From NCBI GenBank assembly GCA_963576565.1, contig OY755038.1, forward strand, positions 174,947,287-175,011,286: 64,000 nt of DNA. Direction: 5' to 3'. The notes below the pieces were generated by a model, which saw only the letters and a program-made list of their open reading frames with translations, did not search any database and was not told where the DNA came from. Positions 22,998 to 50,481 of the stretch are shown here, piece by piece. Origin of the DNA: Aspidapion aeneum. Lineage: Eukaryota; Arthropoda; Insecta; Coleoptera; Brentidae. The translations under genes and the position numbers were made by a program. How positions within the stretch are numbered: position 1 is the first letter of the stretch; every line of letters starts with the position of its first letter.

Positions 22998-23001
22998 ATA
23001 T

Positions 23002-23647
23002 TATCACGCTTGCCTGGCCTCTTTGGACTGGCTTGGGGGTGCGTAGCTCAAAAAATATATGCGTAGAAAAACTCACTCTTTTTGGGGTAGACTTTGTAGA
23101 GTCGGGTTGGGGGTAGCTATTCCCTATTCCCGCCTCGACAGAGCTCTACACGCCGTCACTCTAAACGTAAGAGTGCCACCCTCAGTGAAGGTACCACTCA
23201 GAACGATTTAAAATTGGGATAGGTTAGAAACTTAAGGAGTTATTGGTTATGGTCTTATTAGTTTATAATGGGAGAAAACTCGAAATAACTAACAAACAAA
23301 CTCATAGGTACTTACTTGTAAACTACGGTAATCCTACTTATTTTGGGTCGCTTGCTTATATCTGTCTTTTGGACAGCCACTCGGGACTCGTCTTACTTTC
23401 TCTGCACTCGAACCTAACTTTTCTCTTCCCAAAAACTGACTGCCCTGTCACCCCGTTTCGCACCCTCGATCTTTCTTTCGCGACCATCAAAACTGCTGAC
23501 GGTGTGACATGACATTTATAATTATTATTTAATCTTAATCAAAATATTTGGTAACAACTATAAATGATCGATACAGTGCCGTACGAATTAGCAGACTTGT
23601 ACCCATTTTTAACCCTTTTTTAGCCTTTAATTCGGCCAATCGCTATA
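23002..23647 (-). repeat. 3' LTR of the LTR retrotransposon
   Basis: Starts TATCACGCTTGCCTGG and ends CAATCGCTATA on the plus strand. It aligns along its whole length with 38664-39316, with about 12 mismatches and one 7-base gap (CTACAAG absent here). Being next to the polypurine tract, it is the 3' LTR on the element's strand. It does not have the TG...CA ends common in LTRs. The plus-strand open frame inside it (23243-23512) is a chance frame repeated in the other LTR. Confidence 0.95.
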
Positions 23648-23660
23648 TCTCCCCCCTCTC
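23648..23660 (-). other. Polypurine tract of the LTR retrotransposon
   Basis: On the minus strand this reads GAGAGGGGGGAGA, directly abutting the 3' LTR. That is the position and composition of the primer for plus-strand DNA synthesis. It confirms both the LTR boundary and the element's orientation. Confidence 0.9.
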
Positions 23661-23743
23661 AATAAAGCTCGCCCTCGAGCTTGAGCAGCGACCCACTAAA
23701 CTAACTTACGTATTCTAATCTAACGCTTATCTATTTTTTATTT

Positions 23744-24097
23744 TTATTTTTTTTTATTTATTTGTATGTTTTGAACCATGGACCCATTTCTTACTGCTAC
23801 TTCTTTTGAAGACTCTTCTCGATGGGGTTGAGCGGACTTCTTCAATTTTGGTGGAGCTACTAGTCGAAACTCTCTTCTAGTCATTGTCTGCACTTGGCTA
23901 GGCTCTCTATATCTGTATTCTATGTACCTGTGTGTATCTGTTAACTTTGATCCATTTCCCAGATAACATTCTTTATAGTGACGGTTATACTCAAACTGGA
24001 TATCAATTTGTTTTCGGGGTCTTACACCACTATTGGTTTTTTCATTCCACCTTAATACATAAAAAAAAATTCTGGTCTGATATATAAGCAGGTACAA
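23744..24097 (-). CDS. Hypothetical protein near the 3' end of the retrotransposon (117 codons)
   Basis: An open frame rich in charged and polar residues (Arg, Lys, Glu, Gln, Tyr), with a basic C-terminal half containing RREFRLVAPPKLKKSAQ and ending in a Lys run. It lies between env and the polypurine tract, in the element's sense. Composition is unlike the AT-rich chance frames around it, so it may be a remnant of a real accessory or env-distal gene. I recognise no domain and no signal peptide. It could still be chance. Confidence 0.35.
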   Translation of the reverse strand: MYLLIYQTRIFFYVLRWNEKTNSGVRPRKQIDIQFEYNRHYKECYLGNGSKLTDTHRYIEYRYREPSQVQTMTRREFRLVAPPKLKKSAQPHREESSKEVAVRNGSMVQNIQINKKK

Positions 24098-24099
24098 GG

Positions 24100-25593
24100 T
24101 CTTTTCTTTCCCTTAATACCCACCTTCTTCTATGTATCGTGACCGTATCTTCGGTACACTTTTCGTTATGATTTCTAATTGGACCTTTTTAGTTTCATAA
24201 AATACAGTTTGTGCCTATCCTGCCAAGGTTATAAATTTCTTTACCCCATTTTACCCAGGATAGTAGCTTAGGGCAAGCCCGCGGCTACTTGTAGGTATCC
24301 TGGAACCATAGGTGCGCCGACCAAGGATAGGGTGTTTGTCCGGGTCCCATATTCCGCTTGCTTTGTCCCATTCTCTCCAGTCTTCCCTCATCTTACCGTC
24401 TTTCATTTTGTGTCTTCACTGTTGCTTTGGTCTCCGGAAGTCCAAACATACAAAAAAAATAAAACATTGTTAATATCTGCTCTTGAAATGCCTAATATAT
24501 GATGGGGTAAGTACGATTATGCTCGCCATACTGCTTAAAGTGTTGAGCATATATTTTATTTTTTATGTTTATTTGCCTTTGTCATTAGTGTCCAGTTTAT
24601 TCTTAACATGATATTGACTTAGCATCACGTTTCGTCACGTTACTGTATTTGTATTTTAGTGTCTCTGTTTTGTAGGTTTCGTAAATTGTGACTGTCTGTC
24701 GGTATTTTTAATAATTTATTCATTATTACTATTATAATTTTTTTTAAATACTTTCGACCATTTTTAAGGCAAGTTTGTTTTTTCCCTATAATTATTTCTT
24801 TAGGTTCCCCCCATCATAATCATTAAGTATGAGTCACTTGATATCCTATATTTTTTCTTTGCCTATTCTATTTTCCTTAAATCTTTCCCTATTTATTTTT
24901 ATTCTCTTAAAACAAATGTGCTTTTGCGCATGTGTTCCTGTATTTTAATTTTCCTTTATTTCCTCCACTTATTTTGATTCTTTTATATCTACGCGTATAA
25001 CTCGCCCAACCTTGGGGTCTAAATCGGTAAGTCTAAATCGATATCAACCCTTTTGGGATGCTTTGTAGTGTTCGGGAGTTCCTATAAAAAAAGTGGAGCT
25101 ATCTCAAGAACATGCGAAAATTTTTAGCGACCATTTCGCTCATTCTGACTGTCATATTCAACTCGTCTTTGTTTAGGCGAAAACAGTACGTGTCTTGGTC
25201 TAGTCTAAATTCTACTTATATTATTTTTCGAGTTCCCCCAACTAAAGTTCCTATGTAAATTATTACTTTTCCTCTAATATGTTAATTTTATATATCTAGA
25301 TATATCTATATATTTTTTTTTAAATAAGTTAATCCCACAATAAAAAGTGTACTTTAATAAATAAAATATTTTAAAACTGACAACTGTCTGAGAAACGCTC
25401 TCGTCTTTGTTATTTATACTTTTTTTTTTAATTTAACTTGTCGTGGTTAATTAATCTGTTTACTTTTTATTCATTCGATTCTATCTCTAGACATCAAAAA
25501 TATATTTTTGTCTCTTTAGTCCTACCTTAGTTTTAAATTTAGATAAATTAACTTTTATTTTATATCCCAGAATTCATTAATTTCTACATTGGA
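24100..25593 (-). other. Retrotransposon 3' region without a recognised gene
   Basis: About 1.5 kb between env and the small 3' frame. AT-rich, no conserved frame. If env once had a normal membrane-anchored C-terminus it should have been encoded here, but I cannot recognise it. Confidence 0.45.
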
Positions 25594-26769
25594 TTATATT
25601 ATTATTATTATTTTATTTATTTTTTTATTGGGTCCCTGTCTAGTATCTGCTGCATATCTAGGTAAAAAACATAGTCCGTTGTCATGCGGTTTGCAATTGT
25701 GTAGTCCCACTCCACTTACTACTCTAATGTCTTTTTTCCCTCTGCCTTTTTGCGCTACCGCTACGAACACATTTTCGTGATCTAGTATGCATGTTTGTTC
25801 GGTCCATTTAAATGGTATCATAGCTAGTTCAACAAGTGACCATTCGATGTGTTTTTTTGTTATAGGTATTTTTATATGAATCACGATTTTATCGTTTGTC
25901 AATGTACAATCACATATAGGCATTTGGTAATATTTTGCAATATCTTTTAGTTTTATTGCAAGGTCATGGTCATCCTTGTCTAGCTTTATTCTTAAATCTA
26001 TTAGGTCTCTGTGTAAGATTTCGTAATTTACTATGGCTGAGGGTATTAAACTATTTTTGCAGTCGCTTAATATATCCTGTTTTCTGGTTTCTCTTAGCAG
26101 CTGTAAAAATCTAAGCGTACTCTGATAATGTAGAGTTAATAATTGGTCTGTCATCTTAAAAGCGGAATCTTCTGATTTTTCCACCATGGATTTGAAGTCT
26201 CCCAAAAATATCTCCACGGGTTTTATTTTATCCTCCATTTTATAAAAGTTACCAGCATACTCCTTGTTCAGCTTCTGAAGTTCGCCAGAGCTGTCTCCAA
26301 TGATCCTTAGCGATTTTTGTAATCCTAAATTAATTTTATTTAAGTTTTTCTGTAGCTCCTCTTCGTTCATCGCGAGCGTGTCCAATTTCTTCTGTGTCGC
26401 GATATTGCAACACCACGAGAAGAAGTTCCCTATTGATTCTATCTCCCTAACAACTCGTTTCTTCCCGTATTTTAACGAAATTTCTTTTACTTTGCTTGTG
26501 TTCCAATTTGATTTAATATCTTTTAATTCATTATCTACTAGCAAGTTTAACCCTGTGATACTGTTAATTATGGCGCAGTAGTGATTATCAAGTATACTAT
26601 TTGCTGCTCCTTCGATCCAGTCCATACTGTAGGTGATCGGGATACTTGCTTCATAGGTGACTGTCTCTGGCAGAGGTTTCCAGTATGCTCCTGCTGTTAC
26701 TTCAATCTCGTGCTTTTCAGTAGCGGATGATGCCCAAAGTGTTAATAAAATGGATATAACTGTCTTCAT
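25594..26769 (-). CDS. env: env-like glycoprotein of an errantivirus-type element (truncated)
   Basis: 391 codons. A hydrophobic N-terminus ending near SSA (residues 1-17) looks like a signal peptide. KKRVVR at about 103-108 resembles a furin-type cleavage site and is followed by a hydrophobic, Cys-containing stretch (IESIGNFFSWCC) in the place of a fusion peptide. Residues about 125-290 are helix- and Lys/Glu-rich, and Cys residues cluster near the C-terminus. This order fits Env proteins of insect LTR elements. A T-rich acceptor-like TTTTTTTAG lies just upstream of the ATG (26776-26783), consistent with a spliced env mRNA. No C-terminal membrane anchor exists: the frame ends in a run of Ile codons over an ATT repeat, so the protein is truncated. 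Confidence 0.75.
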   Translation of the reverse strand: MKTVISILLTLWASSATEKHEIEVTAGAYWKPLPETVTYEASIPITYSMDWIEGAANSILDNHYCAIINSITGLNLLVDNELKDIKSNWNTSKVKEISLKYGKKRVVREIESIGNFFSWCCNIATQKKLDTLAMNEEELQKNLNKINLGLQKSLRIIGDSSGELQKLNKEYAGNFYKMEDKIKPVEIFLGDFKSMVEKSEDSAFKMTDQLLTLHYQSTLRFLQLLRETRKQDILSDCKNSLIPSAIVNYEILHRDLIDLRIKLDKDDHDLAIKLKDIAKYYQMPICDCTLTNDKIVIHIKIPITKKHIEWSLVELAMIPFKWTEQTCILDHENVFVAVAQKGRGKKDIRVVSGVGLHNCKPHDNGLCFLPRYAADTRQGPNKKINKIIIII

Positions 26770-26929
26770 TTTTACCTAAAAAAAAGTATGTGTAAGTATA
26801 TATACATCTGTCTTTTACATTCGCGGTTTTTCTCCAATATTTTTCCAACTTTTTGTAGTAGAAATTTTTCCAACTATCAATGAGGGTCCACATACCAACT
26901 TGTCTGGCCATGAAAAGTTGCCTCTCGTG

Positions 26930-27287
26930 CCCTTTTGGCGGTTTCCCTATCCGCTGTCGGTACTATATTAAGTAAGTATATTTATTTATTTATTTATTTG
27001 TTGGCTCCCTGGCTCGATGCTCTTAATGTGCATCGTTATGCGTTACGCCTTAATTTATCAAAATATAATAAATTAATTTATTCCCTATATTTCTTATACC
27101 GTTTTGTATTATATATATTAATGAGGTACCTCCATGTATACTATGTTAATCTTATAGCTATGCTAATATTTACAACGTTGTATTTAAATGCTTGTGTTCT
27201 TATTTAAAACCTTATACCCTTACCTTTTTTCCTATGTATGGATTACTATGCGTAATTATTATGTTATTTAATTTGTCTATGGCGTTT
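26930..27287 (-). other. pol-env intergenic region, AT-rich
   Basis: Includes a short TTTA-type simple repeat near 26972-26999. No gene recognised. Confidence 0.5.
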
Positions 27288-29690
27288 CTACTTCTTATTA
27301 AAGTAAATATTTACAATTCTTTTCACAGCCAGGGCTCTTTCTCTGATCTGTTTCGCATCTGTTTTGCACTCCAGTTCTCTGAGCTGCGCTTCGGCAGGTA
27401 ACACTGGGTCTCTTCCGTAGACCAACATAAACGGTGAGAAACGGGTTGTCTCCTGCCTGCTTGTGTTGTATGCAAACTGTGCGAACGGTACATATCTAGC
27501 CCAGTCCGTTTGCTGGGTGTTGGTGAACATCGCTAGCATATCAACCAGAGTTCCATTAAACCTCTCTGTTAGGCCATTGCATGCCGGATGGTAGCTTGTA
27601 GTAAATCTCGTATAGGTGCCCATAAGTTTTAAGACTTCTTGAACTAACTCGCTGCGGAATACTAAAGCTCTGTCACAAATCATCGTCTGTGGTACTCCGT
27701 GACGAAGAATTATATTCTCTACTAAAAATAATGCTACCGATTCTGCTTTACCTTTGGGTAGCGCTTTACATTCTACATATCTAGTAGCGTAACAGGTTGC
27801 TACTACAATTGTATTATTACCATCGCTCTTTGTCAGTGGGCCCAGTAGGTCTATCCCTATCTTTTGGAATGGGAGGTCGACTTCTATAGGTTGTAGGTTC
27901 CCTGCTGGCTTGGTGTTACTACCTTTCCTTGCCTGGCAGTCTCTACAGCCTTTAACGAACCTTGTTACATCTTTTTGTAAAGTTTCCCAATAAAATCTTT
28001 CTTTGATTTTATAGAGAGTTTTGGTTATTCCTAAATGCCCTGCAGTAGGGTCTGCATGTAACTGATACATGATTTCTCCAATCAATTGTCTTGGTACGAA
28101 TAGAAGTTCCTGCACCCCTGTCGGTGAAGGATATATTTTGTACACTATTCCATTCGTTAACTTAAACTGGTTAGCTCTTTTTCTCTGTGCAATTGTAAGT
28201 CCCTGGAAGTTATTTAATGCATTTTTTATTTCAGTAATCTTTTCATCTTCTTTCTGTAAGTCTCTCAATTCTTCTGGTCGCAAAAGTAATATCTGGATTT
28301 TTTCCTCTTCTTCTTTTTCATTTTGTAGTAATAATGTTGGTATTTCGTCAACATCTATTGTTCGTTTTGATTCCGTTAGCTTCTCCAAGGGGTATCTAGA
28401 CAATGCATCTGCGTCGTTGTTCAGACAGCCCCGTCTGTGGCATACCTCATAATCAAACTCTGACAGCTTTAGGCTCCATCTTATTAGTCTTGTAGAGTTC
28501 TTTATGCTCTTGAACCAGCACAGGGCTGAGTGGTCACTTATTATTTTAATTTTCCTTCCGAAAATGTAGTGTCTAATGTACTCTGTAAAATATACTACTG
28601 CTAGCCCTTCAATTTCTGATATAGTATAATTCTTTTCGTTCTTATTTAGAGTCCGACTAGCATATGCTATGGGGTGGGGTACACCCTCCTTATCTTCTTG
28701 CAATAGAACAGCCCCAATCCCCGTCAACGATCCGTCAACGTACATAATCGTTTCTTTCTCTGAGTTAAAATGCTGTAAGACTGGTGCCGTTGTTAATTTA
28801 TTTTTTAAAATTTCAAACGCTTCTTGTTGTTGTGGACCCCATTTAAACTTTGTGTCTTTTTTGGTTAGGTCATGCAGCGGTCTTGCTATTTTTGAGTAAT
28901 CTTTAATAAATTTTCTGTAAAAGTTTGCTGCTCCTAAGAACGACTGTACATCCTTCACCTTTTTTGGAATTGGATATTGTGAAATGGCGTCTGTTTTATC
29001 TTTATCTAGCAGTAACCCTTGTTCATTTATTATAAAACCTAATAACTTTATCACCTTTTTTAGGTGTGAACATTTTGAAGGTGATAGTGTTAGACCCGCT
29101 GCCCGAATTCTATCGAACACTTGTCTAAGCACTTTTAAATGTGTCGTTATGTCTTTGCTATGTATGCAGATGTCCAAATATGTAAGCACATGTTTCCATT
29201 TCATACCTTCGAAAACCTTATCCACCAGTGCTTGGAACGTGTTTGGGGCAGTACAAAGGCCAAACGGTAAAACTTCAAATCTGTATTGTTTCATACCATC
29301 TGCTACAAACGCGGTGTAATCTTTGCTATCTTCATCCATTTCCACTTGCCAGTATCCACTTAGAAGATCCAAAGTTGTAAAGTATTTGCTACCTCCCAAA
29401 TAGCTTGTTATGTCGTCAATTTTTGGTACTGGCCAGCTGCTTTTCACTGTAACGAGATTTAGCTTTCGAAAGTCGACGCAGAACCTAGTTTTCCCATCTT
29501 TCTTTTTCACCAATACGATAGGGGATGCGTAGGGTGAATGGCAGGGTGTAATGATGTTATATTCTTCTATCTGTTCTGCTATGATTTCTCTCTCCTTATG
29601 ACTGACCCTGTACGGGCGCGATTTTATAGGTGTATTTTCCGTCAACTGGATTTTATGTTTTGTTAAATTTGTACGTCCTAAGCACTTCAT
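27288..29690 (-). CDS. pol: Pol: reverse transcriptase, RNase H and integrase (catalytically damaged)
   Basis: 800 codons without a stop. RT covers about residues 25-265: TTLDLLSGYWQ with the first catalytic Asp at 108, and LPFGLCTAPNTFQ at about 141-153. The box that should read YxDD is YLD followed directly by ICIHS (171-173). One Asp codon is missing, an in-frame loss of three bases at about 29172. RNase H follows with Asp 319 (MYVDGS), an acidic EIEG at about 359, Asp 386 (ISDH) and Asp 426. Integrase has the HHCC zinc finger (His 546, His 552, Cys 582, Cys 585) and the D,D-35-E triad (Asp 614, Asp 673, Glu 709). The domain order RT-RNase H-integrase is that of Ty3/gypsy elements. The first codons may lie further upstream, since Pol is normally part of a polyprotein. 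Confidence 0.95.
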   Translation of the reverse strand: MKCLGRTNLTKHKIQLTENTPIKSRPYRVSHKEREIIAEQIEEYNIITPCHSPYASPIVLVKKKDGKTRFCVDFRKLNLVTVKSSWPVPKIDDITSYLGGSKYFTTLDLLSGYWQVEMDEDSKDYTAFVADGMKQYRFEVLPFGLCTAPNTFQALVDKVFEGMKWKHVLTYLDICIHSKDITTHLKVLRQVFDRIRAAGLTLSPSKCSHLKKVIKLLGFIINEQGLLLDKDKTDAISQYPIPKKVKDVQSFLGAANFYRKFIKDYSKIARPLHDLTKKDTKFKWGPQQQEAFEILKNKLTTAPVLQHFNSEKETIMYVDGSLTGIGAVLLQEDKEGVPHPIAYASRTLNKNEKNYTISEIEGLAVVYFTEYIRHYIFGRKIKIISDHSALCWFKSIKNSTRLIRWSLKLSEFDYEVCHRRGCLNNDADALSRYPLEKLTESKRTIDVDEIPTLLLQNEKEEEEKIQILLLRPEELRDLQKEDEKITEIKNALNNFQGLTIAQRKRANQFKLTNGIVYKIYPSPTGVQELLFVPRQLIGEIMYQLHADPTAGHLGITKTLYKIKERFYWETLQKDVTRFVKGCRDCQARKGSNTKPAGNLQPIEVDLPFQKIGIDLLGPLTKSDGNNTIVVATCYATRYVECKALPKGKAESVALFLVENIILRHGVPQTMICDRALVFRSELVQEVLKLMGTYTRFTTSYHPACNGLTERFNGTLVDMLAMFTNTQQTDWARYVPFAQFAYNTSRQETTRFSPFMLVYGRDPVLPAEAQLRELECKTDAKQIRERALAVKRIVNIYFNKK

Positions 29691-29711
29691 TGATTTCGCA
29701 AATATATCATT

Positions 29712-30623
29712 TTATTCTCCTAGTAGGTTTTTTACCTTGCTCGCGGCTTCTTGGTCCTGTATGTGGTTTAAGCTGTGGTCCTCCATAGATACTTTCTCAT
29801 CCTTGTCATAGTCCTCTCTTAGTGTTGCTAGCATTTCTTTTTGTTTCTTCAGATGTAAGTATCCCACACAGGAGCCTTTATAGAGATACACAGGTGATCT
29901 ATTGTAAGACCTCAGTCTCATTTTATATTTAAAACCTATTTGATAGGGTGTGGATGTCGGTGAGATCGCTCTGTCCAAAAAATATTTTTTATTTTGTTGG
30001 TAAGCTATAAGATCTATTTCTCTTCGCTTGTTTCTACCTAGCAAGGATAGCTCTATCTCTCTATCTTCTCCTGGGCTTAGTACGTAACAATCTGTTAGAA
30101 CTAGTTTTATATTATTTTGTTGACGCATAAAATATTCGTCAGCATTCATAAAGGGCCATTCATATGTCAGTGAATAGTCTACTGCTTGGCTTGTGCTTAT
30201 CGCGGAAGCCTCTTTGTTATATTCTGGGCGGCAATTTTCGCACATCCAGTCTAGCATTGGTTCATCTTCCCACTCCTCTGTGATCTTTTCTTCATGTTTT
30301 TCTTCCGTACTAGGGGTATGTTTTTTGTTTACACCAAGGGCGTTTCTTTTTGTACTATTATTTTCCTTAGGGGCTGCGGTAGTAGTTAGTTTACCTGGCA
30401 TTATCTTTGCTTGTCTTTTTGTTAATGATGTAGGAGCATTAGGTTCTAAACGCTTCTCGGTTTGGGAATAACTCATTGTGTTTTTCTTTGAATTACTCTT
30501 TTTAAGAAGAGGGTTCCAACTACATATTAATATGTCTAGTTGTATGTCTTGAAATATAAATTTAATCATTTTTAAAACTGTTTGCCATTGTAATTTGTCC
30601 AGACCGCAACCTATTCTGGGCAT
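29712..30623 (-). CDS. Polyprotein segment: macrodomain C-terminus plus an unidentified domain
   Basis: 303 codons. The first approximately 36 residues begin MPRIGCGLDKLQWQTV and continue FIFQDIQLDILIC, the last loop, helix and strand of an OARD1/TARG1-type macrodomain, so the apparent start codon lies inside that domain. A Ser/Thr/Lys/Glu-rich linker follows (about 40-125), then a CENC motif (about 130) and a region rich in predicted strands (about 165-260). Its end (MRLRSYNRSPVYLYKGSCVGYLHL) recalls the last strands of dUTPase-like folds. That resemblance is weak and I do not rely on it. The stop at 29712 lies 22 bases before the RT-bearing frame. It is part of the element's polyprotein, between protease and RT. 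Confidence 0.7.
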   Translation of the reverse strand: MPRIGCGLDKLQWQTVLKMIKFIFQDIQLDILICSWNPLLKKSNSKKNTMSYSQTEKRLEPNAPTSLTKRQAKIMPGKLTTTAAPKENNSTKRNALGVNKKHTPSTEEKHEEKITEEWEDEPMLDWMCENCRPEYNKEASAISTSQAVDYSLTYEWPFMNADEYFMRQQNNIKLVLTDCYVLSPGEDREIELSLLGRNKRREIDLIAYQQNKKYFLDRAISPTSTPYQIGFKYKMRLRSYNRSPVYLYKGSCVGYLHLKKQKEMLATLREDYDKDEKVSMEDHSLNHIQDQEAASKVKNLLGE

Positions 30624-31013
30624 TGCTAATCTTTTAACTCCATTTTCTATAATGTGTTTTTTTCATAGAATTTAATGATTTAAACAGGTTAGAGTAAGTA
30701 GGTTTGGTATGTGCTCCTTCTTTGGTCACTAAATAATATAAGAACCGAACCGAACCGAACCGAACCGAACCGAACCGAACCGAACCGAACCGAACCGAAC
30801 CGAACCTCCTACGGGTGTGTTTTGCTCTTTTAAGGCTTCCGTATTATTAAATCTCTTTCGAAACTCTACCGGAATGCCTCTGCTTATTTCCAGTGTAAAG
30901 TCCACACAATGGCATAGAGCGTATTCCTCGGGTACTGTAAACAAATCAATGCATTGTTCGGTGATCTTGCATTTTATTTTTTCTCGATCTATCTTGTTTG
31001 CTTTCTCGCAGAA
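30516..31013 (-). pseudogene. Macrodomain of the OARD1/TARG1 type, frame-broken
   Basis: Read right to left, the conceptual translation follows the whole fold: an entry strand (ITEQCIDLFTVPEEYALCHC), a helix with PVEFRKRFNNTEALKEQN, a central strand with YYLVTKEGAHTKPTY, a helix (NLFKSLNSMKK), and the end MPRIGCGLDKLQW. In human TARG1 the catalytic pair is a Lys in the central strand motif and an Asp in the GCGLD motif, and both have counterparts here. The glycine-rich loop that should follow HCV is altered (EISRGIP). Three faults break it: a TAG just upstream (31014-31016), a 65-bp GAACC repeat that shifts frame (30742-30806), and a shift near a seven-T run at 30657-30663. The enzyme family removes ADP-ribose from proteins. 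A role in the element is inference. Confidence 0.8.
30742..30806. repeat. (GAACC)13 pentanucleotide repeat inside the macrodomain frame
   Basis: Thirteen perfect GAACC units, 65 bases, read as GGTTC on the coding strand. The length is not a multiple of three, so the frames on either side do not join. It sits where the macrodomain family has its second central strand. Confidence 0.95.
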
Positions 31014-31558
31014 CTAATCATATAGGCTTAGAAATGTATTTTCTTCAAGTACTAGCGCCTTGGGTTCTTGTGTTCTTACTAACAGTTTTTTGATATTTTT
31101 TACTGATTCTTGTTGGTAGAGTTTTTTGTAGAACTCTTCTGATCCCTTGTAATATGCTGAAGTAGTGTTATAAATTTTCGCATTTTTTCCTAGCTCTATT
31201 TTGATATGTTTGCCTTCCCACTCTAGCTCCATTAGACCTTGTTTAAAATTGATTACAGCATGCGTATTTCTTAAAAAATTCACCCCCTTATTATAATTGG
31301 ATAAGGTGACTTTTCTATCACCAGGGTTTCGCAGTTAAGTTTAATTTTTCCTATTTTCAGCTCTATGGTTGCTCTACCTAGTACAGGTATTTGTAAATCT
31401 CCTGCCGTGCATAGGTTTATACTTGAAGACGTCTCTATGATTCCATATGATTTATCTCTTCTTAGTACACTTCTTGAGCATCCTGTGTCTACTAGGGCTG
31501 TGGACTCCCTTCCGTTAATCTCTAGCTGTATTACGATTGCCGGTGGGTCCTTTTTAAG
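31014..31558 (-). pseudogene. pro: Retroviral-type aspartic protease, frame-broken
   Basis: The first part (31280-31558) contains the active-site triad in ALVDTGCSRSVL; the Asp-Thr-Gly codons lie at 31481-31489. It continues through a strand with PVLGRATIELK and ends in a TGA at 31280-31282. The following segment NFLRNTHAVINFKQGLMELEW, the expected C-terminal part of the protease, begins in another frame at about 31283 beside a G/C run, so a small indel broke the gene. It then runs about 60 codons to TAG at 31014. Past that stop the same frame continues directly into the macrodomain. The protease lies downstream of gag, as in Ty3/gypsy elements, and would cleave the polyprotein. Confidence 0.8.
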
Positions 31559-31588
31559 CTAGGTTTAAGCCCCTAGTAGTTGCAGCTA

Positions 31589-33102
31589 TTAGTTCTGCCT
31601 TTTTGGACATGTCGCTGCAAAATATCCTTGGCCTTGGCATAAAAAACATCTTCCGGCATTTCTGTTTGTTGGCGTCACGGGTAGAGAACTATTTTCGACT
31701 GTTTCATTAATGTTTCTATTGTTTCTACTTGTGTACGCATTCTCAGTTTGTCTGCCTTCTGTATGTCTTTTGTACTGGTTCCCTCTATCCTGTCCCGCGT
31801 ATTCTCTCGGTCTGATTCCTCTTTGTCCACTATTGCCCACATTCGGGCTCACCTGTGTTGCCCTTGTCTCATTAAATGTTACGTTTGGCGTGTATCCGGG
31901 AAACCTGCTTGGTTCTCTTTTGCCTGTTGACAACTCTCTGTCTTGCCTTGTATATGTTCTGGTATTATACATAGGATCTCCATAGCGACTTTGTCTCTCT
32001 CTCTCGCTAGACCTATAGCTTCTGTAAGTTTCCTGCTGATTACGCACATTGCTATTGTGGCTGTCTCTATCACGTGCCGGTCCAATTGTCCTCTGTGATG
32101 ATCCTTGGTATCTTCCTGTCGTGCTTTCATAGAGTCTCTGAGGGCTTCCGTATCTGACGTCTCGTTTTCGACTACCTCTATCGCTTCTGAAATTTCTGTA
32201 CTCCCCGTTCCTTTCAGTCGGTGCGGCATCTATCGCTTTTGCAATGTCCTTCAGCTCTTGAAAATCTTTAGGTTCTCTCTTTGGTTTGCTAAAGAAATAG
32301 TAGTGTCTCGCAGCTTCCTCAGTTAAGCTCTCCTCAAAGTAATCTAAGAAGATGTCAAAATCGCACTGGGCGTCAAACTGGCTGTAAAGGTAAATTAACT
32401 CATGAAAGTATTCCAGGGTACTTTCGTTTTGGCCTTGCCGTCTTCGTTCTAGGGTCTTTTTTGCCTCTCTTTGTCCAGAGCCCTTCCCCCATTCTTTTAG
32501 GAACTCTCTTTTCACGTCTTCTCATGTATTTTCTTGGTTTTCGTCTCTAGTGGAGTATCGCTCCAACCATTTTAGAGCTGCTCCTTCTAGGAAAGAGCTA
32601 AAGTAGAACAGCTTTAATTCAGTTTTCCACGCATTCGCTATTGCGCGCCTCTCAAAATTATGCATAAATCTTGAGGCCGGCTGCCTACTCGGGGCAAATA
32701 CCTCCGGGCTTATGAATGCGGGAACAGCCGGGATTCTGATCCCTGGAGCTGTTCTACAGCTACGTATTGTCACGTCCAAATCTCGTCTGTATAACGTACT
32801 TGGACCAGCCGATACGTCTCTCTCATAATGCCTCTCTACGCTCTGGCAGTGCCTTACACTCATCCTGCTACGTGCATTTTCTTCCTCCCTATTTATCTCT
32901 GAAGACTGTCGACATCCCCGGTTCTTCGTTTGTCTGTCTCTTGTCCCACTGTTTCTTTGTTCGTCTATCTTGCTCTCTTCTTTTTTCTGCGCTTTAGGAT
33001 TTATTGACTCTATCCTCTCTGTGCAGTCTGCTCCATGCCTTCTGTTGTTGCTTTTGTTGTCATAATCCGATACGCTATCCTTGTGGCCAATTAAAATGCG
33101 TT
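31589..33102 (-). pseudogene. gag: gag, C-terminal two-thirds (capsid and nucleocapsid), one internal stop
   Basis: The frame is open from the edge of the inserted element (about 33102) to 31589, apart from one TGA at 32522-32524 where a Trp codon would be expected next to ENT. The capsid-type retrotransposon gag domain shows FMHNFERRAIANAWKTELKL and FLEGAALKWLERY, followed by LEYFHELIYLYSQF after the stop. The C-terminal half is Arg/Ser/Gly/Gln-rich, as expected for nucleic-acid binding. The terminal zinc knuckle CFLCQGQGYFAATC fits CX2CX4HX4C except that Tyr replaces the His. Gag forms the particle and packages RNA. The stop, the altered knuckle and the insertion upstream make this copy non-functional. 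Confidence 0.85.
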
Positions 33103-36100
33103 GGGTGACATTTGTGGCAAACTAAAAGACGTTGCCGCCATTTTGTGACACTGTAAATAGAACAATAACGCTGTGCCAATTTGTGACACTAAAATCAAAT
33201 TACTGAGTAATTAAACAAATATCTGGAAGCAGAACTGTATTTTCCAGCTAGGTAAAACATGGATATGCCCGGTAACTTTTATACAGTGGAGAAGGGGGGG
33301 GGGGTTCAGAAATAAGAAAATTTTAAGTGCGCCACAGTGTTTTAATACCAATGTTTTACAAAGATCTTAAATAAAATACAGTTCAACTCAAACGTTGTAG
33401 CCAAACAATGAAACTCTACCTACTTCCGAGGCTTCCAGAGTATTTGTGTAATTACAAAAACCAAAAAAATTGACTAATAAACAAAATAAAATTCTAAAAG
33501 ATTCTTAAATGAATCAAAATGACACAAATAGAAAGTTCCTTATAGGTAGATGCACATTTCCAACAGGTCACAGTGTACCTACATTTGAGTCAGTAGTGTG
33601 AGACTCCATTATATAAATGACTGTAAAAAAAACACTTCCAAAATCATTCTGTCATAGGGGAGATCTGGACCAAATATCTGCTGTCATCATTTTACATTGG
33701 GTAGAATGAGACAGACAGCAACCCAGTCCGAGATCTACCCCATGAGGCAAAACAATGTAAGGAAACACTAAAAAAAAATATAATCTCATCTCTCTTTTGT
33801 CTCTGTAAAGTTGGCTCATTGGATTGTACAAATAACGCCAAAATTAGTTCATCTTGTTTATTTTAGTAAAACTACATAAAAACACTGGAAACATGAAATC
33901 CGTTAAAAAAAAAAAAGGAACAAGTTCGGGCCAAAATAGCAAGGCACTCCAAATTTCACAGGAGAAATTGTCTTAAATAAATGAAATGAAGGAAAACAAG
34001 TCAATTTAGTAAATATGCCGCAAAATTTGGTCATGACGTCATACCTTATCTTGCGTTTACAAGAAATGCAAAAGTTGTTCTTAATGAAAAAATTATATGG
34101 AAAATAATATGTAAAAAAAAATTATATCTAAAGCTTGCTCCTACCTTGGTCCTGGATTATTGTATGAGTAAATAAAAAAAAATTATTTTATTTTGTAAAC
34201 CTGGAGTTCTGTTGTCCAGACATCTCCTCACCACTGCACCGGGTCCTGTCCTGTTTACGCCCACCCTGAGGATCTCCTAGCACATGATGCTAGGGCAGCA
34301 CATAGTCAAAAATGGTTGCTGGATTCTTGCCCGAGCGTAAAAACCCTGTGAAAAATGAAATATTTCACTTTCCTTCGTCGGTTTTGCACGAGGTTCCCCT
34401 ACACCGAGAATATTAAATCACGAACCCCATGTCGACTCAATAAAATAAAGTAGATTTAAACAGATGAACTAAAATAATCCTAATGTACCTTTCCCAGGGT
34501 TACAACTGGCTCGAACCTCGTTCCACCAGCAAAACTGTCCCGTCGATGGAATGGACGGGCTGTAACCAAAGGAAAAAACAATATATAGTTTTTATCCAAA
34601 ACGTGGTTACAAAAAAAATATAAAAAAAAACTCCAAAAATTCCCCACGTCTTTTGTCGAAAAAGTACATTTCACACGAAAGAATTAAAAAAAAATTAAAA
34701 AAAATCGATCTTACCACGCTTATTTCCCGTAGAAATGGCGTAGGCCGCCTTAAATCCCTCTCAGAGGATGTGAGCGTCACTTAAGATTCGTCTAAACCAC
34801 GACGGCTCACAGTATACCGTCTTTGGTATAATCTGCAACTACTGCAGTGCCAATAAGTGCCAATAACTACAAAAACAATGGCGACACCAACAGACGGCCA
34901 CCAGCCCAGCCAAAATTCTTTAGGAAAGAGACAAGACACTTTGTCAAGAACACAAAAAAATTGAAGTTGCCGGAAATCGTTTCTAGATTTGGTGGGGACA
35001 GTACACAGTACCAACCAAATTTTCCTAGTTAAATTTAAATAAGAATGCAAACGCATTTATAAAAAAAACGCTCTCGCCGAAAAATCACTAACTCCGGTTT
35101 GCGAGCCTGGAGAAAAAAACTGCGGTTTTCAAACTAACCAATGATGAAATACACTAATACTTCCGTACCCTGCGCATGAGGTGTTGTCGGATCTATTTCC
35201 ACAGTTGAAATTTTTATAACAAGGACATTGAGACACCCTCCATACATAGACCGAACATTTGCTTACCGGGCCCCCGCCAGCATAGCAAGTAGGAGGAACA
35301 TAACCAGCCGGACTATAAGAAGCTCAGCATTGAAACCGTCAACTGTAGAATCAATTACTGGAGATCAGAGCATGCATCAAACCCAGGAATATTCGAACAC
35401 TCAACCAATTTCCATATGAGTAAAGCTATACTAAGTGTAGAATTTAGTTGTATTTTAGTTACAGTTTTAGTCAAAAGTTTCCTTTGCTCTTTATATATGT
35501 TTTCTCTAAGATTCATATGGTTTGACGCCATTTTTGTAAAACATTTCTACATTAATAAAGTTGTTTCTGAACTTGAACCTAAAAATACACATTGAACTAC
35601 TGCTTAAACCCGGCCTAAGAGTGTTCAGATGTTAAGTTTGCTCACCACTAGCTAGCCCTACACAACCCTTCAATCCGACTGAGTTAGCTATTAACTTTAC
35701 TTAACTATGATTATATATAAATTTATATAATATAAAAATACGATTTTGTTTATTCTTTTAGTCCTGGTTTTTATTCCTCGTTTATCTCCCATTTATAAAA
35801 GTGCATAACTCGTATTTATTTTATCTTCTCCTTATCAAATTAATAAAGATATCAAAGTGGGCGGAGCCTCGGTTGTTACTGGTCAAACCGTGGACCTAAA
35901 TATGTTTTCGTGCTATCAAAACTAGCTAATCATCCGTGAAGGATATGAGGTTCGGAAGAGAAAACATTGTCCCAATATCCTCGAAAATAAACATAAGCGA
36001 ATGAAATGTTCATCTAAATGTTTTCTTCCTGTTACTGAAACCATTTGTGATGCGGCAACGTCGCCATTCCCCAGCAGAACAGCTGTTTATTTTCATGAAC

Positions 36101-36402
36101 GTCAAAGAAAATTACGAAATTTTACAGATAAACAAAACAATCAAAAGTTTTTATGTGATTTTTCCCGAAACCTGTGATCTCAAATTCCAATTACGATGCC
36201 TAAATAATGCGACGTGCGCAGTGTCCACACGATGGGATGCTTCCTGTTTAAGGTAACTTTCTGGACAGTATCTAACCTTCAAACCTAGCTCTATAAAATA
36301 CCCTTAATTTGTGTACAGAAAGACCGAGTCGAAGAGCCTTGATTATTTACCTAGATAAACAAATATGTAACGTTTGCCTTAAACGTAAAAATGACACGTT
36401 AC
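33103..36402. mobile_element. 3.3-kb insertion splitting gag; element type unknown
   Basis: The gag frame stops at both borders (about 33102 and 36402) and continues on the other side. The borders carry GGTGACAT and CGTTACAT, a possible imperfect 8-bp target duplication. The ends share GTGACATTTGTGG (left) and GTGTCATTTTTACG (right, inverted). A TTTGTGACACT motif repeats near the left end (33141 and 33179). Inside are a GC-richer non-coding stretch (about 34200-34570), a small inverted pair at 33655-33745 and a segment ending in AATAAA (35550-35560) that could be a poly(A) site. Short plus-strand frames (34847-35032, 35228-35419, 36047-36256) match nothing I know. Confidence 0.65.
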
Positions 36403-36891
36403 ATCCTCTGATAACGATTCTTCTGTACCTTTTCCTGTTAACTCTACGCGTGCTCTACCTGGGTTGAGTTTTCTGTACCCCTTTTCCATGTTATCTTGCC
36501 ATTTTATTGTTTTTCCTATATCTTGTGTTCCGGATCCTCCAGGCAAATGTAAATTTTCTTTTGCCTGTGACTCTCTCTCTACCGGCTTCACCTGGGAGTT
36601 GGAGTCTCTCTCTTGCTCTATCTCTTTTGGTTTTTCTTGTTGTGTCGAAAGATTGTCACCGGTGTTCTGTTGTTCTTTTTCTACTTGCTCTGTTTTCTCT
36701 AGGTTGGGGATCATCGTAATGTCTAGACTTTCAAAAAGCCCGCCGTTTGCGCTTGAGTACGCGCGTGTTACGCGTCTCGGTGTTGCATTAGGCGTGCTCA
36801 TAGAGCCACCTCTCTGTCCTGAAGCTCTTCTTGTCGGGCTGTGCTCGACTAAAGACTTCCTCGCAAAAACGTCTTCTTCATTCGCGCTCAT
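36403..36891 (-). pseudogene. gag: gag, N-terminal third
   Basis: Starts at the ATG at 36891 (MSANEEDVFARKSLVEHSP). It contains a Ser/Arg/Gly/Pro-rich segment with TPRRVTRAYSS, then a Glu/Lys/Gln-rich, probably unstructured or coiled segment, typical of the N-terminus of gypsy-type Gag. The native frame runs into the inserted element at about 36402. A few foreign codons lead to a stop at 36379. The remainder of gag lies on the far side of the insertion. Confidence 0.75.
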
Positions 36892-38663
36892 CTTGTTTTT
36901 GTTTTCTGTACCTAAGACTCTTATTTATATTGCTGTGGTAGTATGGTTAACTACCCCGAGTTCCCCGCTACTAATTTTTTAAAGTGCCCTAATCAAAAAA
37001 AAATTGTCGCCCAAATAATTTGGATAAATTTTTAAGTGCGCCTGATCTGTAAGAAAAAATTCATTCACCAGGGTTTTTGTGTGTGCGCCCTAAAATAATA
37101 TTTTTACGCTGGTAGCGTCCGATGTTTGGCTTAATTTTTTCTTATATATATTTAAATATACTTTTTCCTCTTGCTTTTTTTTTATTTTTACTAATAATAT
37201 TTTTTCTTATCTTCCTCTCAATATTTTGGTAATTTTTTTTTTACCAGTTTTCCACTCAGTTTTTTTTGTCGGATATTCCTAAAATACCTAAAAAATATAA
37301 TTTTTATTATTAGTTTTATTTATTTTACGCAATTTGCCCTTTCCCGAGTGGGTTTAATTACTATCCTGTGGGTGCCTACCAATTTTTTGGCCCACACATT
37401 ATTAAAATATCTTTTAAACTGCCCTTGTAAAAGTGGTGTCTATAATTTCTACACCTTCCCTATAATTTAAAACTTTACTAAAAACCAATGTCACACATTT
37501 ACATGTCTAAACCATCGTTAAATATACTAATAATATAAATAATCGCTAATAGGTAAGCTAATTGTATTAATCTGTATTTTTTGTGCCTATATTTTTTGTG
37601 TTATTTTTAATTTCGACACTCAAAAAAAATCTAAAAAATATAATTTATTTAATTTTGTCCTTTTCCTATTTTAACAAAAAGCAGGAAGAATTGTACCACA
37701 AAATGTCATTCTACATATCATGTTTTTTGGGTAAATCTGGATCATAACAATAAAAATTAAAAATTTTATACCTATTATTTTCAGACAAAAATGAGTAGGT
37801 CGTGTTTATTTATTAAAACACGCAGGTACCTATTTTGTCTACTCAGCAGTTATACTTTTTATTCACGTGTTTTACTGCATGTAAATATGTAAATATGTGT
37901 GACCTAGTCATGACCCAAATATTTCGAGTTGATTTTTTCTAAATAGTCCAAAAAATTTAATAGTTCTTCCCTTGTAAAATTAATATCCTCGGGTTTTGGA
38001 AGAACGATGTTATCGACGATGTTTGTTTGGTATGCACAGGGCGGCTCTGCCCTTATTTCGTTCGGGATTACGTCCCTTGTTCCTGTATGCCTAACTTCCC
38101 CGAGTAGCCTTGCCGTTGCCTCCCTAGCGCGCCTTCTTGTTCTCTTATTTGAACGTTTCCGTCTCATTCGAATTAGGCCTTTTCAGACTGTACAACAGGG
38201 TTTTTCTCTCCTTTTTCGCCGTCTGACCCCAAGGAATCAATCCAGCAAATCGAGAAGAAAAAATCCCTCTGTTTCCGACTTTTTAACGAACGGTATCTCT
38301 TCCGTCTGACCCTTACGAATCAATCAAGAGAGAAGCGGTTTCACGCGAAGTATCCAACCGTTGTACCCTTTGAATCCAGCCAGGGGATACTTGTAATATG
38401 TATTTAACAAAAACACAAAAATAACAAATAAATCAAACACACGTTATTTTATCCCTTTAGAGACAATGGCAAGTTACTTTAATTGGCCCCCCAAAATCAG
38501 TCTTGCCTCGAAATATTTGGGCTACTTTTTGTTTTTTTTTTAATAATTAGAAAATTTCATAAAACTACAGACCAATTTCCTTTGCTTCTATAACTCCAAA
38601 TTTTGAGTGCTGCGAGCGGTGTCTCTAAATTGTAAGGAATTCAAAAACCAGGCGCCTCTACCA
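36892..38663 (-). other. Long 5' leader of the LTR retrotransposon
   Basis: About 1.77 kb between the 5' LTR and gag, with a very AT-rich, T-run-rich centre (about 37130-37900). Near the LTR two imperfect copies of CCGTCTGACCC followed by GAATCAATC occur about 90 bases apart (38219 and 38305). TGG abuts the LTR at 38661-38663 (minus strand), followed by TAGAGGCGCC. That is a plausible tRNA primer-binding site, but I cannot name the tRNA. One small frame is listed separately. Confidence 0.6.
37904..38167 (-). CDS. Small basic protein in the retrotransposon leader (87 codons)
   Basis: Begins with a strongly basic segment (MRRKRSNKRTRRRAREA) and ends acidic (PEDINFTREELLNFLDYLEK). The composition is unlike chance translation of AT-rich DNA and the codons are GC-richer than the surroundings. 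The basic start looks like an RNA-binding or nuclear-localisation type motif. It lies upstream of gag on the same strand. Function unknown; it may be an accessory frame or part of an older, longer gag. Confidence 0.4.
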   Translation of the reverse strand: MRRKRSNKRTRRRAREATARLLGEVRHTGTRDVIPNEIRAEPPCAYQTNIVDNIVLPKPEDINFTREELLNFLDYLEKINSKYLGHD

Positions 38664-39316
38664 TATCACGCTTGCCTGGCCTCTTTGGACTGGCTTGGGG
38701 GTGCGTAGCTCAAAAAATATATGCGTAGAGAAACTCACTCTTTTTGGGGTAGACTTTGTAGAGTCGGGTTGGGGGTAGCTATTCCCTATTCCCGCCTCGA
38801 CAGAGCACTACACGCCGTCACTCTAAACGTTAGAGTGCCACCCTCAGTCAAGATACCACTCAGAACGATTTAAAATTGGGAGAGGTTAGAAACTTAAGGA
38901 GTTATTGGTTATGGTCTTATTAGTTTATAATGGGAGAAAACTCGAAATAACTAACAAACAAACTTATAGGTACTTACTTGTAAACTACGGTAATCCTACT
39001 TATTTTGGGTCGCTTGCTTATATCTGTCTTTTGGACGGCCACTCGGGACTCGTCTTACTTTCTCTGCACTCGAACCTAACTTTTCTCTTTCCAAAAACTG
39101 ACTGCCCTGTCACCCCGTTTCGCACCCTTGATCTTTCTTTCGCGACCATCAAAACTGCTGACGGTGTGACATCACATTTATAATTATTATTTAATCTTAA
39201 TCAAAATATTTGGTAACAACTATAAATGATCGATACAGTGCCGTACGAATTAGCAGGCTTGTACCCATTTTTAACCCTTTTTTAGCTACAAGCCTTTAAT
39301 TCGGCCAATCGCTATA
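38664..39316 (-). repeat. 5' LTR of the LTR retrotransposon
   Basis: Same boundaries and sequence as the 3' LTR, with about a dozen substitutions and an extra CTACAAG. Adjacent to the leader and gag, so it would carry the promoter for the element's minus-strand transcript. No core promoter element could be assigned confidently. Confidence 0.95.
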
Positions 39317-39320
39317 ATAT

Positions 39321-49028: not shown

Positions 49029-49555
49029 TGTCTTTATTTATTTTAAAACACGACGTTTCGGTTAGTAAGTATCTCTAACCGTTATCAAGTGTAAACTAAA
49101 CAATCTAGTCTCTAGGCTACTACTTATACTACTTGGTGTGCAGTCAGGTGTGACGGCCCGCCCCCTTTTTTAATCATAAGACGCCTGTTTTCCTTAAGGA
49201 GTGGTTTCCATATGTTTGGTATGTCCGTGCTTGGTTGACTGAAAACTTCTTTATTCTGCATTATATACGCAGCTTCAATAAACTTTCGTTTTCGCCAATG
49301 CGACTCCTTATGTAAAACTTTAGCTTCTGACCACTGAATCCTGTGATCATTTGACCATGCATGATCTGCTAAACCGGATTTTTCAATATCCCCTAATTGG
49401 GTACTTTTTAGATGTTCATTTACTCTAACCTGAAGAGGGCGTTTCGTTTCACCTACATATGATTTACCACACTCACACGGGATTTGGTAAATACATTCCT
49501 TATTATTTGAGGGATTGTCTGGTTTTGTTTTAGTTACAAAACTTCTTATCGTATT
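48978..49555 (-). repeat. LTR-like direct duplication of the Penelope end
   Basis: Copies 46423-47000 (element tail plus the last approximately 140 codons) upstream of and overlapping the gene start. Tandem partial units of this kind are usual for Penelope insertions. Confidence 0.9.
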
Positions 49556-49617
49556 ACATTATTATACAAAATTTTCTACACCATTTAAACGGTATTCGAC
49601 CAACAATCAAGTGCACC

Positions 49618-50481
49618 ATGGAAATTGAAAAAGATTCGGCCTTACCTTTTTTGGATGTTCTTGTCAAACGATTAGACAGAAACATTCAAACCACTGTATA
49701 TAGGAAACCTACACACACTGGACAGTACCTAAATTTTAAGTCTAATCATTCTGTTGCAACCAAACAAGGAGTTATAAGAAGTTTGTATTTAAGAGCCGTA
49801 AATATTTGTAGTAATAATGAAGAATTAACCATAGAAATTAACAACATTAAAAAGGACTTACAACAGAATGGTTATTCCGAGAAATTAATAAACTCAACGA
49901 TATTTAAAATTAAAAACAAACTAAATGTACCAAATTCTCAAAATAATAATCCGTTAGGTGTTATTAACATTCCATATGTTCAAGGGATTTCAGAAAACAT
50001 AAGACGAATAGCTAAACACTATAATATAAAAACAGTATTTTCTTCGGGAAATACGATAAGAAGTTTTGTAACTAAAACAAAACCAGACAATCCCTCAAAT
50101 AATAAGGAATGTATTTACCAAATCCCGTGTGAGTGTGGTAAATCATATGTAGGTGAAACGAAACGCCCTCTTCAGGTTAGAGTAAATGAACATCTAAAAA
50201 GTACCCAATTAGGGGATATTGAAAAATCCGGTTTAGCAGATCATGCATGGTCAAATGATCACAGGATTCAGTGGTCAGAAGCTAAAGTTTTACATAAGGA
50301 GTCGCATTGGCGAAAACGAAAGTTTATTGAAGCTGCGTATATAATGCAGAATAAAGAAGTTTTCAGTCAACCAAGCACGGACATACCAAACATATGGAAA
50401 CCACTCCTTAAGGAAAACAGGCGTCTTATGATTAAAAAAGGGGGCGGGCCGTCACACCTGACTGCACACCAAGTAGTATAA
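49618..50481 (+). pseudogene. Penelope C-terminal half (GIY-YIG part), inverted partial copy
   Basis: 287 codons on the plus strand, identical or nearly identical to residues about 533-819 of the full protein. This covers the end of RT and the whole GIY-YIG nuclease. It starts at a Met internal to RT and lacks the polymerase motifs. The last residues read KKGGGP where the full copy has KKEGGP. It is part of the same insertion, arranged as a hairpin against 48978-49555. Confidence 0.9.

What the first reader, a model, noticed from the sequence alone, without database searches (positions are those of the whole stretch)
30516..31013. An OARD1/TARG1-type macrodomain sits between protease and reverse transcriptase of an LTR retrotransposon
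The conceptual translation follows the macrodomain fold from first strand to last helix, including the YYLVTKE and PRIGCGLDKLQW motifs that hold the catalytic Lys and Asp of TARG1-type ADP-ribosyl glycohydrolases. It lies on the coding strand, in order, between the DTG protease and RT. Its last third is in one frame with the next polyprotein segment and its first part shares a frame with the end of protease. That placement suggests the domain belongs to the element, not a chance insertion. I do not know of a described gypsy-type element with this domain. If intact relatives exist, the domain could counter host ADP-ribosylation or process RNA/NAD products; that is inference.
Basis: partly seen in the sequence, partly recalled or inferred. 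Interest (0 to 1): 0.88.

Follow-up and report, generated by a model that had tools for sequence, protein, structure and literature searches.

The report
Retrotransposons carrying captured ADP-ribose erasers
A broken jumping gene in this genome carries, between its protease and its reverse transcriptase, a domain that resembles the cell's ADP-ribose-removing enzyme TARG1 and was likely captured from it; relatives with open reading frames carry the domain at three different places in their polyprotein, so hosts may well fight such elements with ADP-ribose tags that this domain is predicted to strip off.

Summary
Separate reading-frame pieces of window 30513-31013 (minus strand) match human TARG1/OARD1 (E 5e-4 and 2e-9), catalytic Lys and Asp present, between a DTG protease and a Ty3/gypsy reverse transcriptase. 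The element is real: LTRs of 646 and 653 bp (97.1% identical), ATAT target duplication, polypurine tract, TGG primer site (23002-39316). This copy is dead: frame breaks, in-frame stops, a (GAACC)13 repeat inside the domain, YLDI for YLDD. The domain is no private insertion: seven other loci of the genome hold it next to the protease, and open polyproteins elsewhere carry TARG1-type macrodomains between protease and RT, between RNase H and integrase, or after integrase. In this genome 28 of 150 scored matches list an open frame of 1446 aa; the two fetched are 98.2% identical and have the RNase H-macro-integrase order. Carriers are scattered over the RT tree (7 changes, at least 6 forced); one origin of the macrodomains is rejected in three tests (p 0.003-0.009), not in a fourth (0.085). 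Ten paper searches listed no such Ty3/gypsy element; macro-domain ORFs in fish retroviruses are in print. Most likely a Pol-borne ADP-ribose eraser; activity and substrate untested.

The parts
22998..23001 (.). target site duplication ATAT, one side
   Evidence: flank read
23002..23647 (-). 3' LTR (646 bp)
   Evidence: blastn of the two LTRs 97.1% over 653 columns, 12 mismatches, one 7-nt gap; seen first
23648..23660 (-). polypurine tract beside the 3' LTR
   Evidence: 13 purines on the minus strand, read
25594..26775 (-). 393-aa ORF in the place of env; identity not established
   Evidence: no Pfam hit and no NCBIfam hit
27288..29711 (-). RT-RNase H-integrase ORF; the YLDD box reads YLDI
   Evidence: YLDD is the majority in the relatives aligned
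29712..30662 (-). C-terminal third of the macrodomain (GCGLD motif) plus linker to RT
   Evidence: TARG1 E 2.3e-9
30634..30843 (-). middle of the macrodomain (YYLVTKE, catalytic Lys) in another frame
30742..30806 (.). (GAACC)13 microsatellite inside the macrodomain
   Evidence: absent from sister copy L083
30729..31013 (-). N-terminal part of the macrodomain (CHCVD ... SRGIPVEF)
   Evidence: TARG1 E 5.3e-4
31014..31334 (-). end of protease and spacer between protease and macrodomain
31280..31558 (-). aspartic protease (DTG)
   Evidence: Pfam Asp_protease_2 E 2.4e-6
31589..32521 (-). gag-like ORF with a zinc-knuckle-like end
   Evidence: no Pfam hit; matches the stretch before the protease in L082 and L084-L087
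32522..33121 (-). gag-like ORF, upstream part
   Evidence: no significant Pfam hit
36379..36924 (-). possible N-terminal gag part, cut off from the rest by about 3.2 kb of other sequence
   Evidence: reading only
38650..38663 (-). primer binding site beginning TGG beside the 5' LTR
   Evidence: read
38664..39316 (-). 5' LTR (653 bp)
39317..39320 (.). target site duplication ATAT, other side

Best explanation
The finding is a broken TARG1-type macrodomain inside the Pol region of an LTR retrotransposon, and in relatives with open frames this domain would likely act as an ADP-ribose eraser that protects the element's reverse transcripts or its RT and integrase from host ADP-ribosylation. Shown by sequence: the domain, its place, its occurrence at three places in open polyproteins, and the kept Lys and Asp. 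Inferred from trees: at least two captures from cellular TARG1-like genes. Inferred from homology: the domain is made as part of Pol, cleaved out or kept beside RT or integrase, travels in the particle, and removes ADP-ribose by the TARG1 Lys mechanism. Most inferred: the substrate. [quoted passage not shown] The window copy itself cannot do this; it is dead.
For: Homology to TARG1: window pieces, P0011 macro E 2.4e-34, own-genome L109 macro E 8.8e-34, L111 macro E 9.2e-29. Same order protease-macro-linker-RT in P0003 and P0011 (P0011 starts inside the protease); of 14 own-genome loci fetched, protease lies before the macro in 10 and RT also after it within the stretch in 5 of those. Two more positions: between RNase H and integrase (P0135, P0141, P0142; own L109, L110, L121; P0146 has it after RNase H and ends there) and after integrase (P0122, P0123, P0128, P0133, P0139, partial P0008). 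Lys kept in 11 of 11 and Asp in 10 of 11 full-length element macros of the protein set. dN/dS of the macro between own-genome subfamilies 0.13-0.39. Recurrence: RT tree 7 changes, at least 6 forced; all carriers as one clade rejected, p 1.1e-6; element macros as one clade rejected at p 0.006, 0.009, 0.003. Recency: 28 of 150 scored matches list a 1446-aa open frame (counted by eye), the two fetched are 98.2% identical over 7.3 kb. [quoted passage not shown] it also acts on nucleic-acid ends (PMC7050489, passages).
Against: No activity, expression or particle data. P0003 lost the Asp motif; own-genome L101/L105 read GRGLD, L109 ACGLD, L083 GCGPD, so some domains may not catalyse. Loop 1 is altered in 12 of 17 element rows, which could change or abolish substrate binding. 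In group P0123/P0128/P0139 the macro is no better conserved than protease and linkers. dS is near saturation, 90 of 153 pairs were beyond it, and within-subfamily values reach 1.36. Without the two long rows, one clade of element macros was not rejected (p 0.085). Among the 120 proteins listed only P0003, P0008 and P0011 show the domain by HMM, so it is dispensable in this lineage. I did not check that each RT-tree row labelled 'none' covers all three positions, so some changes could be truncations. No host enzyme that ADP-ribosylates retroelement products was tested or found here.
Confidence: 0.6

Rival explanations
1. The domain is a reader, not an eraser: it binds ADP-ribose or RNA and tethers Pol to ADP-ribosylated host structures (for example damaged chromatin), guiding integration or packaging.
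For: 12 of 17 element rows changed loop 1; P0003 lost the GCGLD motif but still aligns over the domain; the place after integrase in P0122, P0123, P0128, P0133, P0139 resembles that of chromodomains in chromoviruses (recalled).
Against: Lys and Asp are both kept in 10 of 11 full-length element macros, which binding alone would hardly need; in the window lineage the domain sits far from integrase, before RT.
Confidence: 0.2
2. The domain works on small molecules or RNA-processing products (ADP-ribose 1''-phosphate, O-acetyl-ADP-ribose, NAD metabolites), as in the reader's second guess.
For: TARG1 hydrolyses O-acyl-ADP-ribose esters (PMC7050489 passages).
Against: Gives no reason for fusion to Pol at three places; not tested.
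Confidence: 0.07
3. A host TARG1 retrocopy fell into one element copy by chance and is a passenger.
For: The window copy is broken; its C-terminal piece scores best against a Tenebrio protein without RT or integrase (P0127, 55% over 49 aa).
Against: Same place in the seven other fetched loci and in P0003 and P0011; low dN/dS between subfamilies; no flanking direct repeat of 30 nt or more.
Confidence: 0.03

Closest known systems
TARG1/OARD1 (C6orf130), ALC1-like class macrodomain hydrolase
   Same: Sequence over the whole domain (E down to 2.4e-34), catalytic Lys and GCGLD Asp in most element rows.
   Different: Fused inside a Ty3/gypsy Pol; loop 1 reads x-[K/R]-G instead of G-[A/S]-G in 12 of 17 element rows and in 0 of 18 cellular or RNA-virus rows (P0003 and P0008 not in that tree).
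DarG antitoxin, DNA ADP-ribosyl glycohydrolase
   Same: Best NCBIfam model for 5 of 5 macro pieces tested (E 5.8e-7 to 1.3e-14; NCBIfam is a prokaryote library, so no TARG1 model competes); 10 of 80 phage relatives have Lys in loop 1.
   Different: All scores (29-54 bits) far below the 250-bit cut-off; a DarT partner or DarG C-terminal part was not looked for.
Macro-domain ORFs of fish epsilon-like endogenous retroviruses (Basta et al. 2009, as cited in PMC4977317)
   Same: A retroelement that carries a macro domain.
   Different: Described there as additional open reading frames in ray-finned fish retroviruses, macro class not named in the one passage I saw; the DOI I recalled for the original is not held. 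Here: Ty3/gypsy elements, inside Pol, TARG1 type, three positions.
AlkB/m6A demethylase domain of orchid Ty3/Gypsy elements (PMC9289625, abstract)
   Same: A Ty3/gypsy lineage that fixed a cellular enzyme domain able to erase a chemical mark.
   Different: Other mark, other host kingdom, an additional ORF in one lineage, and there the activity was measured.
Macrodomains of plus-strand RNA viruses (PMC7729036, passages)
   Same: Selfish element with an ADP-ribose hydrolase fold in its replication polyprotein.
   Different: In the passages I saw TARG1 appears only as a comparison for PAR release; here a TARG1-type domain sits in reverse-transcribing elements.

Membership tests
TARG1/OARD1 type (ALC1-like hydrolase macrodomain) | Sequence similarity over the whole domain | tested here: met
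   Window pieces E 5e-4 and 2e-9; relatives with open frames E 2e-34, 9e-34, 9e-29
TARG1/OARD1 type (ALC1-like hydrolase macrodomain) | Catalytic Lys (Lys84) in the TK motif | tested here: met
   Window YYLVTKE; 11 of 11 full-length element macros. The number 84 is from PMC8501950 and PMC7050489 passages; its mapping to TK is my count
TARG1/OARD1 type (ALC1-like hydrolase macrodomain) | Acidic residue 125 in GCGLD | tested here: met
   Window GCGLD; 10 of 11 element macros. PMC7050489 prints Glu125; the TARG1 chain aligned has Asp in that motif
TARG1/OARD1 type (ALC1-like hydrolase macrodomain) | Loop 1 MGAGIA (a feature of the cellular rows here, not a published criterion that I saw) | tested here: not met
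   Window ISRGIP; x-[K/R]-G in 12 of 17 element rows and in 17 of 17 distinct stop-free own-genome macros that cover the loop (read by eye; they were found with a K/R-loop query, which favours that type). Phage relatives vary too
TARG1/OARD1 type (ALC1-like hydrolase macrodomain) | Hydrolase activity | not testable with these tools
   needs protein
Ty3/gypsy LTR retrotransposon | Two LTRs with target duplication | tested here: met
   97.1% LTR pair, ATAT duplication
Ty3/gypsy LTR retrotransposon | Order protease-RT-RNase H-integrase | tested here: met
Ty3/gypsy LTR retrotransposon | RT related to Ty3/gypsy Pol | tested here: met
   67% to P0002, 56% to P0003, 43-44% to two proteins named Transposon Ty3-I Gag-Pol (P0032, P0050)
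Errantivirus / envelope-bearing insect retrovirus | env gene | tested here: inconclusive
   393-aa ORF at the right place, no Pfam or NCBIfam hit
DarG antitoxin | NCBIfam equivalog cut-off 250 bits | tested here: not met
   29-54 bits

The most novel reading that the evidence does not exclude
Hosts restrict Ty3/gypsy elements by ADP-ribosylating their reverse transcripts, and the elements have answered again and again by taking the cell's own DNA ADP-ribose eraser into Pol and retuning its substrate loop with a positive charge: a eukaryotic counterpart of the DarT/DarG conflict between phages and bacteria.
Probability: 0.25. Interest if true: 0.93.

Novelty: new variant of a known kind. Interest (0 to 1): 0.82.

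Why it matters
Domains that selfish elements acquire repeatedly point at what the host does to them. TARG1-type macrodomains at three places in Pol, in lineages scattered over the RT tree and in a family with many open frames, would make ADP-ribosylation a likely front between hosts and LTR retrotransposons. That is directly testable with an isolated domain of about 140 aa and published DarT and PARP assays. The loop-1 change gives a concrete structure-function question.

Tried and rejected
Chance similarity: rejected. Lone retrocopy: rejected. Viral contigs as a source of relatives: the scan with A1 gave 80 loci, none with an RT match by tblastn; scans with P0139 and P0003 gave none. A degenerate macro in P0020: hhalign probability 58 at best, left out of the counts. 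P0002, the closest RT relative, starts inside RT and says nothing about the domain. Capture from one source: not settled; the K/R-loop macros as one clade are not rejected (p 0.108), so swapping of the domain between elements is possible. Structure prediction was not run: the similarity to solved TARG1 chains made it redundant, and alignment A2 is poor because the domain sits at different places. The host's own TARG1 gene was not found: the pattern search meant for it did not complete. A count of the RNase H-macro-integrase family with its own macro and larger samples of copies were not obtained either. Taxon of the window: not established.

Papers: all ten searches used; no listing showed a Ty3/gypsy element with a macrodomain. 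Long result lists were seen only in part, and the library lacks most subscription journals, so absence in print is only as good as these searches.

Full report
What is there. The element lies on the minus strand. Its LTRs are 23002-23647 and 38664-39316, 97.1% identical over 653 columns with 12 mismatches and one 7-nt gap, flanked by ATAT on both sides, with a purine tract next to the 3' LTR and a TGG site next to the 5' LTR. The span is 16.3 kb, which includes about 3.2 kb of other sequence between gag-like ORFs (reading only). [quoted passage not shown] A 393-aa ORF sits where env would be and has no family hit.

The domain. Three ORF pieces between protease and RT resemble TARG1: N-terminal (31013-30729, PDB E 5.3e-4), middle (30843-30634) and C-terminal (30662-29712, E 2.3e-9). 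Pfam Macro reaches only E 0.037 with the C-terminal piece and is not listed for the other two. The catalytic Lys (TKE) and the Asp (GCGLD) can be read in the pieces. The three lie in different frames. A perfect (GAACC)13 array interrupts the domain. Sister copy L083 lacks it and has one 220-aa open frame from the end of the protease-side spacer through the macrodomain into the linker, though its own domain differs elsewhere (GCGPD) and other sequence interrupts its spacer. The RT box reads YLDI where relatives have YLDD. The window copy is dead.

Relatives elsewhere. A search with the RT ORF (3274 proteins at E 1e-30 or better, 120 listed) and a local comparison found the same order in P0003 (56% RT identity) and P0011 (50%; it starts inside the protease, whose remnant matches at E 0.006), and a partial macro after integrase in P0008. 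An HMM of the domain found it in no other of the 120. A search with the P0011 macrodomain gave 26 proteins including itself: 10 are Ty3/gypsy-type by RT or integrase domains (P0011, P0122, P0123, P0128, P0133, P0135, P0139, P0141, P0142, P0146), one is an alpha-like RNA virus polyprotein (P0145), and 15 show no RT or integrase in the Pfam lists. Only proteins of 736-2341 aa could be found, so ordinary short TARG1 proteins are missing. The macrodomain lies between protease and RT (A), between RNase H and integrase (B; P0146 ends soon after it, without integrase), or after integrase (C). P0141 is annotated in Athalia rosae; P0133 is filed under Erysiphe pulchra, which could be contamination.

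The same genome. G000 has 1.286 Gb in 149 contigs; the window is C1:174947287-175011286. The protease-side spacer finds 10 places; 8 became loci, one being the window, and all 8 hold macrodomain pieces in order (L082 has only the N-terminal part before a deletion). The 66-aa N-terminal macro piece gives 150 scored matches of 202 candidates, a lower bound; 28 of the 150 list an open frame of exactly 1446 aa, by my count. They are not all independent insertions: C4:67218519 and C4:67919523, and other listed pairs on C4, lie about 701 kb apart and look like one duplicated stretch. Of 14 places fetched (chosen by me for different frame lengths), 10 have protease before the macrodomain, 5 of these also RT after it within the stretch, one has RT but no protease hit (L120), and three have RNase H-macro-integrase order (L109, L110, L121). 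L109 and L110, the only two of the 28 that I fetched, are 98.2% identical over 7.3 kb; L111 and L112 98.0% over 5.7 kb.

Constraint. Of 11 full-length element macros in the protein set, 11 keep the Lys and 10 the Asp; P0003 lost the GCGLD motif. Compared with P0139, the macro of P0128 is 75% and of P0123 57% identical, less than RT and integrase (73-93%) and within the range of protease and linkers (30-80%); P0141 against P0135 gives 59% macro, 37% following linker, 67% integrase; P0003 against P0011 gives 31% macro, 20-25% linkers, 57% RT. Conservation alone is thus weak evidence. Nei-Gojobori dN/dS of own-genome macros is 0.13-0.39 between subfamilies at dS 1.5-2.4 and 0.28-1.36 within subfamilies; 90 of 153 pairs were saturated and 9 near identical.

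Loop 1. Cellular rows read [M]G[A/S]GIA. In one search, 12 of 17 element rows have K or R in the middle position and have also lost the first Gly; 0 of 18 cellular or RNA-virus rows do (P0003, with a wholly different loop, and partial P0008 were not in that tree). In the own genome the 17 distinct stop-free macros that cover the loop all have K or R there (read by eye; an eighteenth, L088, does not cover it). These were found with a query that itself has the K/R loop, so GAG-loop elements of this genome could have been missed. Control: of 80 phage loci, 10 have Lys in the middle and none Arg, all ten keeping the first Gly. The positive charge alone is therefore not element-specific; the combined change is, in this sample.

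History. RT tree of 56 rows (chosen by me from 126): macro carriers need 7 changes, at least 6 forced by starred branches; all carriers as one clade p 1.1e-6; position A alone p 1.4e-4; tests for A+P0008, B and C did not finish. Rows labelled 'none' were not checked for full coverage of all three positions. Macro trees: element macros as one clade p 0.006 with two long rows, 0.085 without them, 0.009 loop-masked and without them, 0.003 with own-genome rows and P0146 but without P0003. K/R-loop rows as one clade are not rejected, p 0.108 (0.417 and 0.072 for smaller sets). Groups were partly named after seeing trees. The reading: at least two captures, with gains, losses and perhaps swapping of the domain between elements.

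Mechanism. TARG1 cleaves ADP-ribose from Glu/Asp and from nucleic-acid ends (PMC7050489 passages) and from thymidine in DNA, with Lys84 needed (PMC8501950 abstract and passages). A domain that sits in Pol in every element placed here would be carried with RT and integrase and meet the reverse transcripts. I therefore favour protection of cDNA or of Pol proteins from host ADP-ribosylation. Everything after homology is inference. A paper titled as showing that ZAP restricts human retrotransposition (PMC4441479, listing and start of abstract only) points to a PARP-family protein that acts on retroelements, not to this mechanism.

Prior art. PMC4977317 (one passage) cites macro-domain ORFs in fish epsilon-like retroviruses. 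Cellular domains in Ty3/gypsy or other LTR elements are known (orchid elements, PMC9289625 abstract; bdelloid elements, PMC5408684 passages). The ten searches listed no macrodomain in a Ty3/gypsy element. Hence: a new variant of a known kind.

The probability of the novel case went from 0.28 to 0.25 because the loop argument is weaker than first written; the other odds stand.

Noticed in passing
P0145 (protein), residues 753-902: An alpha-like RNA virus polyprotein (methyltransferase, helicase, RdRp) carries a TARG1-type macrodomain with MGAGIA, TK and GCGLD kept.
   Followed up: partly
L113 from about 4060 (own genome C1:127316000-127323500): Comparison with L115 shows shifted matches in steps of 135 nt, so a tandem array seems to follow the macrodomain inside the open frame of both.
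   Followed up: no
P0123, P0128, P0133, P0139 after the macrodomain: A CCCH zinc finger match follows the macrodomain (partly below cut-off); P0133 then continues into a weak Ty3 capsid-like match (E 8.9e-4, below cut-off).
   Followed up: no
P0135 1266-1352 and P0141 460-517: A second, partial macrodomain match between RNase H and integrase.
   Followed up: no
window 33122-36378: About 3.2 kb of other sequence separates gag-like parts of the element; its nature was not determined.
   Followed up: no
window 46569-50481: Large ORFs with RT-like and GIY-YIG-like stretches in copies on both strands, perhaps a Penelope-like element (reading only).
   Followed up: no
L001-L080 (phage contigs): Ten of 80 phage TARG1-like macrodomains read MGKGI or LGKGI in loop 1; this might mark a DarG-like subgroup.
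   Followed up: no
own genome C4, about 67.07-67.92 Mb: Several listed matches pair up about 701 kb apart with equal frame lengths, which suggests a duplicated stretch or an assembly duplicate.
   Followed up: no
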